Assembly (NCBI GenBank): GCA_017395245.1
Contig: JAFPVR010000081.1
Span: 1-64,000 of the forward strand
DNA: 64,000 bases
DNA from: Bacteroidales bacterium
GTDB taxonomy: Bacteria > Bacteroidota > Bacteroidia > Bacteroidales > WCHB1-69
Direction of reading: 5' to 3'
The notes under the pieces are model-generated. The model was given only the letters and a program-made list of their open reading frames with translations. It made no database searches and was not told where the DNA came from. Shown here in pieces: positions 8,686 to 13,442 of this stretch; within the stretch, counting starts at the first letter, position 1, and each line of letters starts with the position of its first letter. The position numbers were made by a program, and so were the translations under genes.

Positions 8686-9879
8686 ATGAAAAAAGCTCTA
8701 CTTCTCATAGCCACGATGCTATGCTGCGCGATGACCATCTTCGCGCAAAACGACAAAATCAGCTACCAAGCCGTGGTGCGCGACACCGCGAACCGCCTGG
8801 TGGCCAACAAGAACGTGGAAGTCACGGTGAACATCTTCAACGGCACGGCCACGACGGCCGCCTACACCGAGACACAGGCGGTGACGGCCAACTACAACGG
8901 TCTCATCTCCCTGCTGATCGGCCCCGACGGGAACAACGCCGGCTGGAACAGCATCCAGTGGAACAAGGCCCGCATCGAGACCACGGTGAAACTGGATGGC
9001 ACTGAACTCGGCACGTTGGCGATGCCCCTCACGGCGGTGCCGTACGCGGTCATTGACAACAAGCTGACCACGAAAGCCGATGCCGACAATGTGTACTCCA
9101 AGGCTGACATGGACCAAAAGTTAGGCGCGAAGGCCGACACTGCCATTCTTGCCAAGGTTGCCAAAACGGGCAGCTACAGCGATTTGAGCGGCAAGCCTGA
9201 GATCAACAACGTCACGCTGACCCTTAAGCAGGGCAACGCCACGTTGGGGACATTCACGGCCAACGCTTCGCAGAACCAGGAAATTGTGATTCCGACACAG
9301 GCCATCCTGGAACAAGTGAATTCCGACTGGAACGCGACGAGTGGTGCAGCGGGGATACTATTACAACTGGTCGGCGGCGATGCACGGTGCGGCCTCATCC
9401 GCGGCGAGCCCCAGCGGGGTGCAGGGCATCTGCCCCGACGACTGGCATGTGCCGAGCGACGCGGAGTGGACGGCGATGACGGACTATGTCGGCAGCCAGA
9501 GCGCATACGTCTGCGGCACCAACAGCGAAAACATCGCCAAGGCGCTGGCCTCCACGGAGGGGTGGAACACCTACACGTCCAGTTGTGCGGTGGGGAACAC
9601 GCCAGCAAGCAACAACGCGACGGGCTTTTCCGCCGTTCCGGCAGGCAACTGCTACGGTTCGTCGTTCGGCAGCGCGGGCAACAACACCAACTTCTGGAGT
9701 ACTACGCAGAACGAGAGCAACTCGAACAACGCATACAACCGCAACCTGAACTACAACAACGCGAACGTGAACAGGGGCAACAACAAGAACAAGAACAACG
9801 GGATGGCAGTGGCTCTCTCGTTGCTACAGGGAATGCCGGAACTGTGCGAACCTGCAAGAATCCCGCTTTCACCCCATGA
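8686..9879 (+). pseudogene. Broken surface protein: YQAVVR N-terminal domain fused out of frame to half a FISUMP domain
   Basis: The first frame encodes a signal peptide (ending TIFA-Q), a domain starting ISYQAVVRDTANRLVANKNV (the same N-terminal domain as the 1934-residue protein at 13.9 kb), a KADADNVYSKADMDQKL spacer and a beta-rich stalk to SDWNATSGAA at ~9345. The next frame (9341-9830) carries only the second half of a FISUMP domain (RGYYYNW, GICPDDWHVPSDAEW, NATGFSAVPAGNCY, NTNFWSTTQ) and an Asn-rich tail. After ~9812 the first frame resumes as SLVATGNAGTVRT and stops at 9879. The FISUMP front half (QCWMKENLR) is missing. GCAGCGGGG is meaningful in both frames at the junction, so a microhomology deletion is likely. 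The end overlaps the RNA ligase gene by 11 bases. Confidence 0.75.
9680..9805 (+). other. AAC-rich tail resembling a diversity-generating-retroelement variable region
   Basis: Of the 40 codons from 9680 to 9799, 19 are AAC and none is AAT. They encode NNTNFWSTTQNESNSNNAYN followed by RNLNYNNANV and NRGNNKNKNNGM. Dense AAC codons near the end of a lectin-like or FISUMP-like domain are the signature of DGR template and variable repeats, because adenines are the mutagenised bases. No reverse transcriptase or second copy is present in the window. Confidence 0.45.
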
Positions 9880-10906
9880 TGTACGCCTGCCCCATATAAA
9901 CCTTCTTCACCAGACTGGTGCAGAGCCGGTTCAGCTCCTTGTTGAACGACTTCTGCTCGCATTTGTCGAGGGCCGAATAGGGACCGCCGTGCTCCTTGAG
10001 GAAATCGTCGAGGGTGTCTTTGGAAAACAGCCCCATCACTTTGCCGAAATCCTTCGGGAAATGTAACTCCCCGATATGACTCACCACATTGTCCAGGCGG
10101 TTTTCGGTGACGTAGGCTTCGCCCTCTTCGATCAGCGCTTTCAGCTCGTCGCTGTAAGGGATGGGTTCGGCAAAGAGCTTGTTCCGTTTTTTCACGCTAT
10201 TCTTCTCGGCAAACCGTTCGTTTTTGCTTTTGATCAGCACCCGCGTGCCGTTCCGCAGATACGTCGGCACCACAGGCCGGATGACAATCCCTTCGCAAAT
10301 GTTGCCCTCGATGGCGGGCAGTCCCAGCCATTCGGCGATCCGGCTCGGGAAGGCGTTGGGATGTTTCAGGCACTCGGCCAAAGTTCCCCTGAATAGCGTC
10401 CTGGCGTAAAGGAACCCCTCAGTCTCGAAGAGCCCGTTCATCTCCTCAACGGACAGGAACCGACCACCGTCCTCCGTGAACAGGTAGAGGTCGAAGGCGT
10501 AGAACTCGTGCCCGGGGGTGTAGAAGACACCTTTCTGGATAAGTCCCACTTTACGGTTGGCTTTCACTGCATTGTGCGGGTACCGTCCGCCGAACATCTC
10601 CCCGAAGACGGAAATGTGCGTCGCTTCCGGATGCCTCGCCTTGACGTCGGCAAAGAGTTTCAGCACCCTTGCCTTGTACCGGTCGAGCATTTCGGGGTAG
10701 TCGTAAAACGGTTCCTCATCTGCCAGCATCGCCGTCCGTTTGGCGAATCGTACCTCCTCGCCGTCGCAGAGAAAGCTGGTGTTGGCGCCGTGCACCTTCT
10801 CCTGCACCACATATTCCAGATCCGGCGGTGTCTCCGCCACCACGTATTCCATATACTCCCGGTTGTAGGAGTTCTCAATGGAGCTGTACTTCTTGAATTC
10901 AATCAT
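9869..10906 (-). CDS. Rnl2-type RNA ligase
   Basis: 345 residues. All nucleotidyltransferase motifs of the T4 Rnl2 branch are visible: motif I EKVHGAN with the adenylated lysine (~residue 38), motif III FGEMFGG, motif IIIa FYAFDL, motif IV EGIVIRP, and motif V IKSKNERF. The enzyme is expected to seal nicked or broken RNA using ATP through a lysyl-AMP intermediate. The C-terminal ~100 residues are a helical extension seen in bacterial members. It is transcribed divergently from the unknown gene at 11082 across a ~100 bp palindromic element. A second copy of that element lies between the next divergent pair, and a sigma factor gene lies 2.5 kb away. No TAnnTTTG box is seen upstream. RNA repair under special sigma control is an inference. 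Confidence 0.92.
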   Translation of the reverse strand: MIEFKKYSSIENSYNREYMEYVVAETPPDLEYVVQEKVHGANTSFLCDGEEVRFAKRTAMLADEEPFYDYPEMLDRYKARVLKLFADVKARHPEATHISVFGEMFGGRYPHNAVKANRKVGLIQKGVFYTPGHEFYAFDLYLFTEDGGRFLSVEEMNGLFETEGFLYARTLFRGTLAECLKHPNAFPSRIAEWLGLPAIEGNICEGIVIRPVVPTYLRNGTRVLIKSKNERFAEKNSVKKRNKLFAEPIPYSDELKALIEEGEAYVTENRLDNVVSHIGELHFPKDFGKVMGLFSKDTLDDFLKEHGGPYSALDKCEQKSFNKELNRLCTSLVKKVYMGQAYIMG

Positions 10907-10955
10907 ACCTTAGTGTTTTTTGTTAATCGTTTTGCCTTTTCACTCGGCTGTTTCA

Positions 10956-11057
10956 CCCTATATGTATGGATAAACCGGAAATGTTACAGCGGGAAAATTT
11001 TTTTTTGAAAAAAAACTTCCGGGCGTGTAACATTCCGCGTAAAGCCATACATTAGGG
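10956..11057. promoter_or_regulatory. ~100 bp palindromic element, copy 1 (divergent promoter region)
   Basis: Nested inverted repeats: outer arms CCCTATATGTATGG (10956-10969) and CCATACATTAGGG (11045-11057); inner arms GGAAATGTTACA (10977-10988) and TGTAACATTCC (11026-11036); centre a T-run, one G and an A-run. Copy 2 is at 12149-12249. It separates the RNA ligase gene from the gene at 11082 and is followed by a shared GTGAAC. Confidence 0.75.
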
Positions 11058-11081
11058 CGTGAACATCAAAATAACAACGCT

Positions 11082-11567
11082 ATGAGCTTGGATTTGTACA
11101 TTAAAAGGAGAACACCTTTGCGCAAACAAGGGACTGGGGTGTTTGTACGGGAAAAAGGGCAGACTCTTGAACTGAAGACCATCGAAGAAGTGCGGGAATA
11201 TTTTCCGGATAAGGATTTGTCGGGTATTAGGATAATCGAGCAAGAAGACGGTGTCTTTTGGCACGGGAATGTCACGCACAATCTGGGGGCGATGGCCGCG
11301 GCGGTTCTGGTTGAGGGGTCGGTTTTGACGCTGTATGATTTGTTGTGGCACCCGGGTAGGCATGGCTTCGGGGACGCGGGGTCGGAAGGGTACAGAGAGA
11401 ATGTCCTGAAAGGCTTTCTGTTCCTGCGCGGGCATCGGGAGGAACTGCTCCCGTTGAATCCTGAAAACGGATGGGGCGGTTATGACCTGTTGCTTGGGTT
11501 CACAAGGGATTATCTGTTCCATCTGGTCCAGGCGGAGGATGATTGCGGGATTGAGGCATCAAGATGA
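11082..11567 (+). CDS. Hypothetical protein, MSLDLYI type
   Basis: 161 residues, no signal peptide or membrane segment. The N-terminus has the pattern SLDLYIKRRTP...TGVFVRE seen in uncharacterised proteins of phages and bacterial accessory regions. A central WHGNVTHNLGAMA segment and a C-terminal ENGWGGYDLLL segment (His, Asn, Gly, Trp-rich) look like conserved functional patches. It starts 25 bases after palindromic element copy 1 and converges with the next gene, leaving ten bases between stops. It has no recognised domain and may act with the neighbouring RNA ligase, but that is only context. Confidence 0.75.
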   Translation: MSLDLYIKRRTPLRKQGTGVFVREKGQTLELKTIEEVREYFPDKDLSGIRIIEQEDGVFWHGNVTHNLGAMAAAVLVEGSVLTLYDLLWHPGRHGFGDAGSEGYRENVLKGFLFLRGHREELLPLNPENGWGGYDLLLGFTRDYLFHLVQAEDDCGIEASR

Positions 11568-11577
11568 CGGGCGGGCG

Positions 11578-12126
11578 TCAAGATGACGATCCGTTGTCGC
11601 GCCATGCGATATGTTTTGCCCCGGACAAAGTGGCAAGCGTATCGAAGGCGTGCGCGAAGATGTCGTCCCGTAGTTCTTTGTTGCGCGGCTGGTGCCGCAT
11701 GTATTCGTCGGTGGTGACCCAGTGGCTGAAAGGTGGTTCGTTCTCTTCCTGCAAGCCTTCCGGACCGAGCAGGAACCCGATCCTGTAGTGGGGATAAACG
11801 AACACCGACTTGTCTTCGGTGACGATGACCACCATCGCGCCGTTGTTGTTGTCGCAGTGCATAAGCACCTGTTGACAGTCCTCCAGCTTGTTGAAGTCGT
11901 AGCCGTTCCAGTCGTTTCCAAGGTCGGCAAGCCCGTCGAGTTCCATTGCTCCGGTGCAGAATCGGAATATGTCTTGCCCATCCGGTTTGAAATATCTTGC
12001 GGAAACGAGATGGATGAACGCCATCGGCAGGTACCTGCGATAGCCCCATTGGAGATGGTAGACCTTGTTCAACCGAGTGCCGTCGCGCCCTTCAATTTGC
12101 AGTAGTAGATTTGTTCTTTGACCCAT
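11578..12126 (-). CDS. Hypothetical protein, VYHLQWGY type
   Basis: 182 residues, soluble. The N-terminus (MGQRTNLLLQIEGRDG) and the VYHLQWGYRRYLPMAFIHLV segment recall uncharacterised accessory proteins. An acidic middle (CDNNNGAMVVIVTEDKSVFV) resembles a beta sandwich. Convergent with the gene at 11082 and divergent from the small gene at 12277 across palindromic element copy 2. The G+C-rich composition matches its neighbours, so the cluster seems to be one unit. Function unknown. Confidence 0.72.
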   Translation of the reverse strand: MGQRTNLLLQIEGRDGTRLNKVYHLQWGYRRYLPMAFIHLVSARYFKPDGQDIFRFCTGAMELDGLADLGNDWNGYDFNKLEDCQQVLMHCDNNNGAMVVIVTEDKSVFVYPHYRIGFLLGPEGLQEENEPPFSHWVTTDEYMRHQPRNKELRDDIFAHAFDTLATLSGAKHIAWRDNGSSS

Positions 12127-12148
12127 AGTGCGATTTATTTTTGTTTTT

Positions 12149-12249
12149 CCCCTATGTGTGGGATTTTTGGAAATGTTACAGCGGGAAATTTTTTTTTGAA
12201 AAAAAACTTTCGGGCGTGTAACATTCCGTTTTCAATCATACATACGGGG
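12149..12249. promoter_or_regulatory. ~100 bp palindromic element, copy 2 (divergent promoter region)
   Basis: Outer arms CCCCTATGTGTGGG (12149-12162) and TCATACATACGGGG (12236-12249); inner arms GGAAATGTTACA (12169-12180) and TGTAACATTCC (12217-12227); the same T-run/G/A-run centre as copy 1. It lies between the genes at 12126 (minus) and 12277 (plus) and ends in the same GTGAAC. Confidence 0.75.
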
Positions 12250-12276
12250 TGAACAACGAACAAAACTTAGACGAAA

Positions 12277-12426
12277 ATGATATACGTTATCCAAAACCGA
12301 ATCGTGTGGGTTGTGTATGACGACCGAGATAGCGGCTGGTCATTCGGGAAGTGGATATTCCCGAGTGTCAGGAACGAGCACCGGGAGCCGGTGATAGTGA
12401 TACGGTTGGGGGCTCGTCGGTTGTGA
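12277..12426 (+). CDS. Small hypothetical protein (49 residues)
   Basis: ATG at 12277, TGA at 12424-12426. The peptide starts MIYVIQNRIVWVVYDDRDSG, continues through a W-S-F-G-K-W-I-F patch and ends with a basic R-L-G-A-R-R-L. It is aromatic and looks like a compact beta protein. Its position 27 bases after palindromic element copy 2 mirrors that of the gene at 11082 after copy 1, which is the main argument that it is real. Function unknown. Confidence 0.5.
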   Translation: MIYVIQNRIVWVVYDDRDSGWSFGKWIFPSVRNEHREPVIVIRLGARRL

Positions 12427-12434
12427 TGATGCTC

Positions 12435-13442
12435 TCACCCGCCGATGAACCGTCCTACCAGATTCCACAGTGCCTCTCTGGAAAGCTTGGCCTTGTAAGG
12501 TGTCGCGTTTTCGTGCAGAAGGTCGCCTGAGAAGTCGAGGTGAGTCTGGCGGAGACTGCGGACGGCTCCGGCACAGTCGCGGTCCAGGGAGGAGATGGTC
12601 TGGTCGTAATAGAACAACAGGGTGGGGTAGAGGTGGAGGAAGTCCTCGTGGATGCGCTCGGCCATCCTCCGGTGCGGGTCGTCAAGACGGAGGGGCTCGC
12701 CTTGGAGCAGACGGGCGCGGTACCGGGCGAGTCTGCCTTTAACGCGGTGGACGGCCACCCGGTAGGAGACGTCGGTCATCCCGAGGGCTCCGGCCATCTC
12801 GTCCCGAGGGACCGACCTCCGCTTGTCGAGCATCGAGAGCAAGGCGCGGAACAGGAGGAAGGCGTCTCGCGGGGTCATCTCCTGATGGGCGTAGGCGATC
12901 AGATGCGAGGCGATTGCGAGCTTCCGCTCGTCGGTCAGGATGGAGGACGCGGCGTCGGTGTGAGGGGAACCGTCGCCGATCCCGTTGCCGGCATGCCGGT
13001 CTGGGAGGTCACTGGCGTCGAGCTTGGTGCAAACGATCGCTCCTTCCTTGGCGGTGCGCACGCTGAGGTAGTTGCGGAAAGTGCGGAGCATCCAAAGGAC
13101 GAACGCCTCCGGGTTGCGGATGCGCCGCACCGAGGGATATAGGGGCTGTCCCCCCTTAGGGGCTCCGGCAATCTCATCCGCCGCGTCACAATTGCCGATG
13201 TGGTCGACTTCCTGTTCCCCGTCCCGGAGGTAGAAGAAGAAATCGTCAAGTATGTCGTCGAAGTCGTCGAACAGATGGTGGTGAACAATCTCGTACCGCT
13301 TTTTCAACGGCAGGTAAAGGAGACGATGCAGCAGGTAGTACATGGCTTCGTCCGCCTGCTCGCCTCCGTCGAGGATAATGCCGACGAAATCAGCGACGGG
13401 AACGTTTGCGAAGGGGGCTTTCGTTTTTTCAATGGTGCTCAT
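12435..13442 (-). CDS. Divergent sigma-70-family RNA polymerase sigma factor
   Basis: 335 residues. A region-2-like part spans ~60-130: an acidic FDDFDDILDDFFFYLRDG helix, then NPEAFVLWMLRTFRNYLSVR, which matches the 2.3-2.4 DNA-melting helix pattern. Region 4 lies at ~205-245 (VPRDEMAGALGMTDVSYRVA followed by VHRVKGRLARY), a helix-turn-helix ending in the usual basic helix. Long insertions and a ~90-residue C-terminal extension separate it from ordinary ECF factors. No anti-sigma gene is adjacent. It may direct polymerase to the two palindromic elements next to it, since none of the cluster genes has the vegetative box; that is inference. Confidence 0.75.
   Translation of the reverse strand: MSTIEKTKAPFANVPVADFVGIILDGGEQADEAMYYLLHRLLYLPLKKRYEIVHHHLFDDFDDILDDFFFYLRDGEQEVDHIGNCDAADEIAGAPKGGQPLYPSVRRIRNPEAFVLWMLRTFRNYLSVRTAKEGAIVCTKLDASDLPDRHAGNGIGDGSPHTDAASSILTDERKLAIASHLIAYAHQEMTPRDAFLLFRALLSMLDKRRSVPRDEMAGALGMTDVSYRVAVHRVKGRLARYRARLLQGEPLRLDDPHRRMAERIHEDFLHLYPTLLFYYDQTISSLDRDCAGAVRSLRQTHLDFSGDLLHENATPYKAKLSREALWNLVGRFIGG

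What the first reader, a model, noticed from the sequence alone, without database searches (positions are those of the whole stretch)
9869..13442. RNA ligase / unknown proteins / divergent sigma factor cluster with two copies of a 100 bp nested palindrome
The intergenic regions of both divergent gene pairs carry the same ~101 bp element (10956-11057, 12149-12249): outer arms around TATGTATGG, inner arms GGAAATGTTACA / TGTAACATTCC, a T-run/G/A-run centre and a common GTGAAC end. None of the five genes has the vegetative TAnnTTTG box that most other units in the window have. A divergent sigma factor with long insertions is part of the cluster. Together this looks like a small regulon: a dedicated sigma (or palindrome-binding regulator), an Rnl2 RNA ligase and three unknown proteins. 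It could be an RNA-repair or anti-phage module.
Basis: partly seen in the sequence, partly recalled or inferred. Interest (0 to 1): 0.75.

Follow-up and report, generated by a model that had tools for sequence, protein, structure and literature searches.

The report
Dedicated sigma factor for RNA repair
The repeated palindrome is best read as a pair of back-to-back gene switches that answer to the unusual sigma factor encoded beside it, which in gut and rumen Bacteroidales seems to control a small, variable set of genes that includes RNA-repair enzymes.

Summary
In detail: two ~100-bp near-palindromes at 10950-11066 and 12144-12258, the only two copies found in the genome. Each is best read as two back-to-back promoters: the inner arms are -35 boxes (TGTAACATT), the outer arms -10 boxes (CATAC-A/T-TA) 11-12 bp on, and the T/A centre a shared AT-rich tract. 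The site follows the cluster's divergent ECF-like sigma: of 40 genus genomes 12 carry the sigma, and the strict half-site is in 11, all carriers. Of 37 sigma loci from other genomes, 23 hold a site. Half-sites precede the ligase, p161, p182, p49 and, elsewhere, p537, HicA, DUF1016 and RhuM genes; none of 49 distinct sigma genes has one, so autoregulation is unlikely. Clusters in other lineages hold Rnl2, RlaP, HAD-SAK, an OB-fold ligase fragment and metallophosphoesterases. In seven Prevotella-type species the sigma is fused to AlkD, a DNA-alkylation-repair domain. Best reading: a dedicated ECF-type sigma running an accessory RNA-repair/stress regulon, perhaps switched on by nucleic-acid damage. 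Recognition of the site by the sigma is inferred from co-occurrence; no structure prediction was available; in this genus the ligase is rare.

The parts
9869..10906 (-). Rnl2-family ATP-dependent RNA ligase, 345 aa
   Evidence: TIGR02307 197.4 bits (cut-off 197.15), PF09414 and PF18043; 2e-37 to T4 Rnl2 2hvq with EKVHG, FGE, EG and KSK stretches aligned (motif names recalled)
10961..10988 (-). half-site promoter TGTAACATT-N11-CATACATA driving the ligase (start codon 54 nt further)
   Evidence: 43.9 bits, E 5.3e-11; this site was in the model
10998..11015 (.). T9-G-A8 centre of element 1: AT-rich tract shared by the two promoters
   Evidence: sequence; mean AT fraction 84% at 10-20 nt upstream of the -35 over 97 sites, 51% over their loci
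11026..11053 (+). half-site promoter driving p161 (start codon 28 nt further)
   Evidence: 28.2 bits, E 4.7e-6; in the model
11082..11567 (+). p161, conserved protein of unknown function
   Evidence: no Pfam, NCBIfam or PHROGs hit at E<=0.1; homologs behind sites in L082, L104, L123 and in the p537 operons L061, L072, L134; distant relatives in viral contigs
11578..12126 (-). p182, conserved protein of unknown function
   Evidence: no family hit; homologs behind sites in L066, L074, L082 (L066 and L074 aligned)
12153..12180 (-). half-site promoter driving p182 (start codon 26 nt further; -10 CACACATA, one mismatch)
   Evidence: 31.3 bits; in the model
12189..12206 (.). T9-G-A8 centre of element 2
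   Evidence: sequence
12217..12244 (+). half-site promoter driving p49 (start codon 32 nt further)
   Evidence: 31.2 bits; in the model
12277..12426 (+). p49, 49-aa protein; 13 of 14 family members found have a site upstream
   Evidence: in loci fetched because of the sigma or the site
12435..13442 (-). divergent ECF-like sigma factor with variable region 2-4 linker and a conserved C-terminal extension of about 85 residues
   Evidence: regions 2 and 4 read by eye; site upstream in 0 of 49 distinct sigma genes

Best explanation
The 335-aa protein at 12435-13442 is an alternative (ECF-type) sigma factor. RNA polymerase carrying it starts transcription at TGTAACATT-N11/12-CATAC(A/T)TA. Each 'nested palindrome' is two such promoters placed back to back around one AT-rich tract, so the two elements switch on four genes at once: the Rnl2 ligase, p161, p182 and p49. 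A fifth site elsewhere in the genome drives p537 plus a second p161. The sigma is probably made from a vegetative promoter and held inactive by its own extension or an unknown partner until a signal arrives. The regulon varies between species but repeatedly contains RNA-repair enzymes, and sometimes HicA-type toxin genes. In a Prevotella-type clade the sigma is fused to an AlkD domain, which suggests nucleic-acid damage as the signal. Shown: site structure, co-occurrence with the sigma, gene content, fusion. Inferred: recognition of the site by the sigma, repair function, signal.
For: In 40 genus genomes the sigma is in 12. The strict half-site is in 11, all carriers, its reversed control in 0 of 40; Fisher 5e-9. 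The pattern came from four genomes (G000, G012, G016, G026); leaving these out, the 7 new genomes with a site are all among the 8 carriers left in 36 (p 1e-6). Sites lie also on contigs without the sigma. From other genomes, 23 of 37 sigma loci carry a site; none of these trained the matrix. 59 of 97 have an ATG frame 8-60 nt downstream, against 1416 of 5000 random positions. Sigma70_r4_2 is hit by 7 of 45 homologs, best 2.8e-5. Repair genes in clusters: Rnl2 in window, L066, L111, L120; RlaP in L111; HAD_SAK_2 in L120; OB-fold ligase fragment in L121; metallophosphoesterases in L094, L104, L106, L108, L131. The Rnl2 C-domain is in 8 of 295 order genomes, so two in 505 kb of outside loci has p about 9e-6 (taking 3.3 Mb per genome). 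AlkD-sigma frames in 7 species.
Against: The window sigma has no Pfam hit. Profile A4 against solved structures gives five matches at E 0.27-0.67: first NarL, then four sigma factors; profile A2 gives none. The fold could not be predicted. Co-occurrence is not recognition, and model R1 was trained on sites from sigma genomes. At E<=1e-3 R1 also hits 2 of 28 genus genomes without the sigma: G025 (two strong sites; 68% complete) and G002 (6.8e-4). In the order, R1 at E<=1e-3 hits 3 of 291 genomes without the sigma, and misses G055, the weakest carrier. 10 of 12 sigma genomes of the genus have no ligase under a site; only 5 ligase copies were found in the 40, and the other three have no site in the stretch held. 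14 of 37 outside loci lack a site scoring 16. L120's repair operon has a weak site (13.5). The AlkD fusion was not seen in this genus. 38 of 97 sites have no ATG frame within 60 nt.
Confidence: 0.72

Rival explanations
1. The palindrome is an operator for a separate dyad-binding regulator (repressor or activator), and the sigma is a linked passenger.
For: Each element is a good dyad, and shared operators between divergent genes are common (general knowledge).
Against: Single half-sites are common and point at genes. The spacing of the two boxes is 11-12 bp in 95 of 97 sites, while the gap between divergent half-sites varies from 32 to 42 bp in 14 pairs. The site follows the sigma although the genus carries two sigma lineages.
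Confidence: 0.1
2. The element is a mobile repeat (MITE or REP type) that happens to sit between these genes.
For: Long inverted repeat, two copies 88% identical.
Against: Two copies only in 3.78 Mb. In relatives the conserved part is limited to the two boxes and their spacing, in front of diverse genes.
Confidence: 0.03
3. A dedicated sigma regulon as described, but a general stress, toxin-antitoxin or anti-phage regulon in which RNA-repair genes are only occasional cargo.
For: HicA, DUF1016/YhcG (PDC-S02), RhuM (PDC-S05), Schlafen-AlbA and helicase genes follow sites. The ligase is missing from most genus members.
Against: Several unrelated RNA-repair families in sigma clusters of different lineages; Rnl2 and HAD_SAK are rare in the order, 8 and 10 of 295 genomes.
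Confidence: 0.3
4. The hairpin acts in RNA as a bidirectional terminator or regulatory leader.
For: Strong predicted folds on both strands with a U-rich centre.
Against: It lies before, not after, both diverging genes. The inverted arms are explained by two like promoters. The only Rfam match is at E 0.58, far below its gathering score.
Confidence: 0.03

Closest known systems
RtcR/sigma-54 control of the rsr-yrlBA-rtcBA RNA-repair operon in Salmonella (PMC9879122; abstract and outline seen)
   Same: An alternative sigma system dedicated to RNA-repair genes; in Salmonella 14028s it answers to genotoxic stress.
   Different: Sigma-54 with an enhancer-binding activator and RtcB/RtcA there; here one ECF-like sigma and Rnl2, RlaP or HAD-SAK genes. 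RtcR and RtcB were not searched for.
ECF sigma factors with regulatory C- or N-terminal extensions (PMC8103513 and PMC8999054; passages seen)
   Same: Apparent two-region sigma with an extension and a bipartite promoter.
   Different: The find tool gave no occurrence of 'alkylation' in the first and none of 'alkyl' in the second, so an AlkD extension seems not to be described there. Which numbered ECF group this is was not tested.
T4 RNA ligase 2 (Rnl2) family
   Same: Whole-length match with catalytic stretches.
   Different: Chromosomal and under the sigma site; the best-listed phage copies are 34-35% identical.
RNA-repair protein families RlaP (PF10127) and HAD_SAK_2 (PF18143, 'Swiss Army Knife RNA repair proteins')
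   Same: Members occur in sigma clusters L111 and L120.
   Different: I recall no sigma factor as part of those systems; the source paper I tried to read was not held.

Membership tests
ECF sigma factor | sigma region 4 (HTH) domain | tested here: met
   Sigma70_r4_2 in 7 of 45 homologs at E<=0.1, best 2.8e-5; the window member itself has no hit
ECF sigma factor | sigma region 2 domain and overall fold | tested here: inconclusive
   profile A4 aligns with four sigma-factor chains at E 0.34-0.67, after NarL at 0.27; structure prediction not accepted
ECF sigma factor | own bipartite promoter with fixed spacing | tested here: met
   co-occurrence and spacing; recognition itself inferred
[quoted passage not shown]
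   conserved C-terminal extension, AlkD N-terminal fusion in 7 species; whether p49 is an anti-sigma was not tested
ECF sigma factor | transcription activity with core RNA polymerase | not testable with these tools
   needs in-vitro transcription
Rnl2 RNA ligase | nucleotidyltransferase domain with its motifs and the Rnl2 C-terminal domain | tested here: met
   PF09414, PF18043, TIGR02307 just over cut-off; motif residues aligned to 2hvq
AlkD (relatives only) | DNA_alkylation Pfam domain in one frame with the sigma | tested here: met
   L096 164.9 bits (only this one was scanned); the other six by 77-87% identity to it in one open frame with the sigma
AlkD (relatives only) | catalytic or damage-binding residues | not tested
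   no solved relative at 1e-3 for the single sequence
MITE/REP mobile repeat | many dispersed copies | tested here: not met
   2 copies in the genome

The most novel reading that the evidence does not exclude
An ECF sigma family of rumen and gut Bacteroidales is a built-in nucleic-acid-damage switch. An AlkD-type domain, fused to the sigma in a Prevotella-type clade and presumably replaced by other extensions or partners elsewhere, senses alkylated or broken nucleic acid and releases the sigma to fire back-to-back promoters for RNA end-healing and sealing enzymes (phosphatase, nucleotidyltransferase, Rnl2) plus several new families (p161, p182, p537, p108, p49) that would be unrecognised RNA-repair factors.
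Probability: 0.33. Interest if true: 0.87.

Novelty: new variant of a known kind. Interest (0 to 1): 0.7.

Why it matters
RtcR with sigma-54 is the switch for RNA repair that my paper searches turned up; how other bacteria switch it on is open as far as I could see. A single sigma with a readable promoter gives a handle: each gene behind the site becomes a candidate RNA-repair or RNA-damage gene, including five families without any known function, and a damage-repair domain fused to a sigma suggests a direct signal. It also explains a striking palindrome as a two-way promoter, a pattern that can be searched for elsewhere.

Tried and rejected
Mobile repeat: rejected on copy number. RNA family: one match at E 0.58. 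Autoregulation: no site upstream of any of 52 family frames; these are 49 distinct sigma genes plus two duplicates (L148 = part of L095, L149 = part of L121) and one stand-alone AlkD frame (L082). Phage origin: sigma and p182 have no match at 1e-3 in 50,697 phage records; seeded scans of IMG/VR found no relative of sigma or p537; p161 has one phage record (csAssE-Sib) and six viral contigs, not read further. The ligase has 1,362 phage records at 1e-10, all under 60% identity. Leader before RhuM/HicA genes: a 9-pair consensus hairpin with no two-sided compensation, left as a lead. p537 and p161 profiles against solved structures: one match at E 0.4 and none. Marginal sites not believed: G000:C97, whose match lacks the -35, G002, and three order genomes at E 4-6e-4.

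Limits of the counts. Model R1 and the matrix were trained on 26 sites from sigma genomes, so matches in those genomes come by construction. The 79-locus set was chosen by sigma or site and holds the two duplicates above; without them there are 95 sites, 57 with an ATG frame. Some loci share near-identical stretches (L061/L072/L130, L109/L111, L095/L123, L071/L075/L060, L076/L077/L127). The 37 are the 49 minus 12 (11 whose contig lengths equal genus contigs, and L078, dropped as near L079); that all 37 lie outside the genus was not checked.

Literature: in searches no listed title or abstract start joins an ECF sigma with RNA repair or AlkD. I saw listings only, apart from PMC8103513 and PMC8999054 (passages) and PMC9879122 (abstract and outline). 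The library is partial.
Full report
What is there. Two ~100-bp near-palindromes sit between ligase/p161 and between p182/p49. They are the only two matches in the 3.78-Mb genome and fold better than shuffled sequence. The genes are an Rnl2 RNA ligase, p161, p182 and p49 without any family match, and a divergent sigma-like protein that ends head-on against p49.

How the palindrome is built. A search of 60 relatives returned whole elements in a few genomes and also single halves. Twenty-six aligned half-elements share an invariant TGTAACATT, then 11 or 12 bases, then a box close to CATAC(A/T)TA. Over 97 sites in 64 of the 79 loci scanned the consensus runs T-rich, TGTAACATTT, spacer, CCATACTTTAAGGGTGAAA, with a mean AT fraction of 84% in the bin 10-20 nt upstream of the first box against 51% in the loci. 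In the window the start codons follow 26-54 nt after the second box, read outward (p49 from coordinates, 32 nt). This is the anatomy of a promoter, and the palindrome is two of them back to back. Fourteen divergent pairs were found, with 32-42 bp between their -35 boxes.

Link to the sigma. The 40 held genus genomes were searched. The sigma is in 12. The strict site is in 11, all of them carriers, the reversed pattern in 0 of 40 (Fisher). The pattern was drawn from four of those genomes; among the other 36, the 7 with a site all fall within the 8 carriers (p 1e-6). A sequence-only model of the half-site (R1), trained on sites from carriers, at E<=1e-5 matches all 12 carriers, plus G025 (68% complete, no sigma found), and none of the other 27; at E<=1e-3 it also matches G002. 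Sites occur on contigs other than the sigma's. In the order the sigma is in 4 of 295 genomes, one of them by a 51.7-bit partial match, and R1 at E<=1e-3 hits 3 of those 4 (the window's own genome among them) and 3 of the other 291 (stricter filters). A tree of 45 sigmas puts the nine genus copies included in two separate, well supported groups, so the sigma reached the genus more than once or was partly lost. All nine 12-bp spacers among the 26 aligned sites belong to genomes of one group, but two other sites of that group's genomes (L059, L068) have 11. Forty-nine loci with sigma relatives came from public genomes, mostly rumen Bacteroidales and Prevotella MAGs. After dropping 12 that repeat or lie near genus genomes, 37 remain, of which 23 have a site scoring 16 or more; the 14 misses are listed. 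None of the 37 trained the matrix.

The protein. The window sigma has no Pfam hit, but 7 of 45 homologs hit sigma-70 region 4. The profile's five matches among solved structures are weak (E 0.27-0.67): NarL first, then four sigma factors. By eye it has ECF-like region 2.4 and region 4 motifs, a long variable linker and a conserved C-terminal extension. None of 49 distinct sigma genes has a site upstream.

The regulon. Behind sites: p49 in 13 of 14 family members; p537 in 10 of 15 frames (of the rest, four lie behind another site-driven gene and one is a fragment); p119 in 3 of 3; p161 in 4 of 7 (the other three follow p537); p182 in all 4 loci where found; and the full-length ligases of window and L066. 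In this genome a fifth site drives p537 and a second p161 (L134). Full-length p537 is in 8 of 12 sigma genomes and 0 of 28 others; two of those 28 have a distant partial match of about 257 bits. Other genes behind sites in relatives: HicA (46.3 bits in L136; below cut-off in L059) with a HicB-like partner by eye, DUF1016, RhuM, a helicase, Schlafen-AlbA and a metallophosphoesterase. The HicA and RhuM starts lie more than 100 nt after the site.

RNA repair. In other lineages the clusters hold Rnl2 (L111, L120), RlaP with its own site (L111), a HAD-SAK RNA-repair protein and a zeta-type kinase (L120), the OB-fold part of a putative RNA ligase cut by a contig end and behind a site (L121; PF21189 44.4 bits, TIGR02306 only 23.8 of 151), and metallophosphoesterases (L094 with only a weak site, L104, L106, L108; L131 in the genus). 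L120's operon has a weak site (13.5). The Rnl2 C-domain is in 8 of 295 order genomes and HAD_SAK_2 in 10 of 295; two Rnl2 genes in 505 kb of outside loci would be expected 0.004 times (taking 3.3 Mb per genome). Against this, the ligase domain was found only 5 times in the 40 genus genomes; two copies (window, G062) are under a site and the other three have none in the stretch held.

Signal. In seven species labelled Prevotella, Prevotellaceae or Bacteroidaceae an AlkD domain is in one frame with the N-terminus of the sigma (L096, L099, L100, L101, L102, L109, L111). L082 has a stand-alone AlkD gene in the cluster and L094 part of one at a contig end. On the tree the fused forms need three changes, which may be one gain and two losses. 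This suggests alkylation or strand damage as the signal; the step is inferred.

Literature. The nearest functional parallel is RtcR/sigma-54 control of RNA repair under genotoxic stress (PMC9879122, abstract and outline). A review describes C- and N-terminal extensions of ECF factors and says that nothing mechanistic is known about N-terminal ones (PMC8103513, passages); another names a DUF2275 N-terminal extension in ECF36 (PMC8999054, passage). No listed title or abstract start joined an ECF sigma to RNA repair or AlkD in the searches named in Tried and rejected.

Noticed in passing
L076:9425-9560, L077, L128, L129, L133, L136, L145: Downstream of sites in front of RhuM and HicA genes (and before neither in L128, L129) lies a conserved leader with a short hairpin around GCGATGATnnTTnTCCT; nine consensus pairs, no two-sided compensation. 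It may be a leader RNA or small RNA.
   Followed up: partly
window 8686-9879 and 9341-10066: The FISUMP-type lipoprotein gene before the ligase seems to continue in another frame from about 9340, so it looks frameshifted, truly or by assembly (by eye).
   Followed up: no
L062:2307-2381: A 25-residue stretch like the Rnl2 C-terminus (88% identical) lies behind p49 in G012, as if the ligase had been lost there (where the locus was L021).
   Followed up: no
L060, L063, L067, L069, L071, L074, L075: One half of the divergent element has a weaker -10 (CATACTAT); in L060, L063, L071 and L075 it faces a TolC-like gene (named by eye).
   Followed up: no
L125:7929-8555 and 9002-9030: A short (208-aa) distant sigma relative in a Barnesiella MAG has a site (21.7) before a von Willebrand-A-like gene (by eye; no Pfam hit); it could lead to a cultured host.
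   Followed up: no
L061:3168-4367, L104:12648-13844, L106:9689-10891: An AAA ATPase of about 400 aa recurs in p537 clusters (Pfam AAA in L061 and L104).
   Followed up: partly
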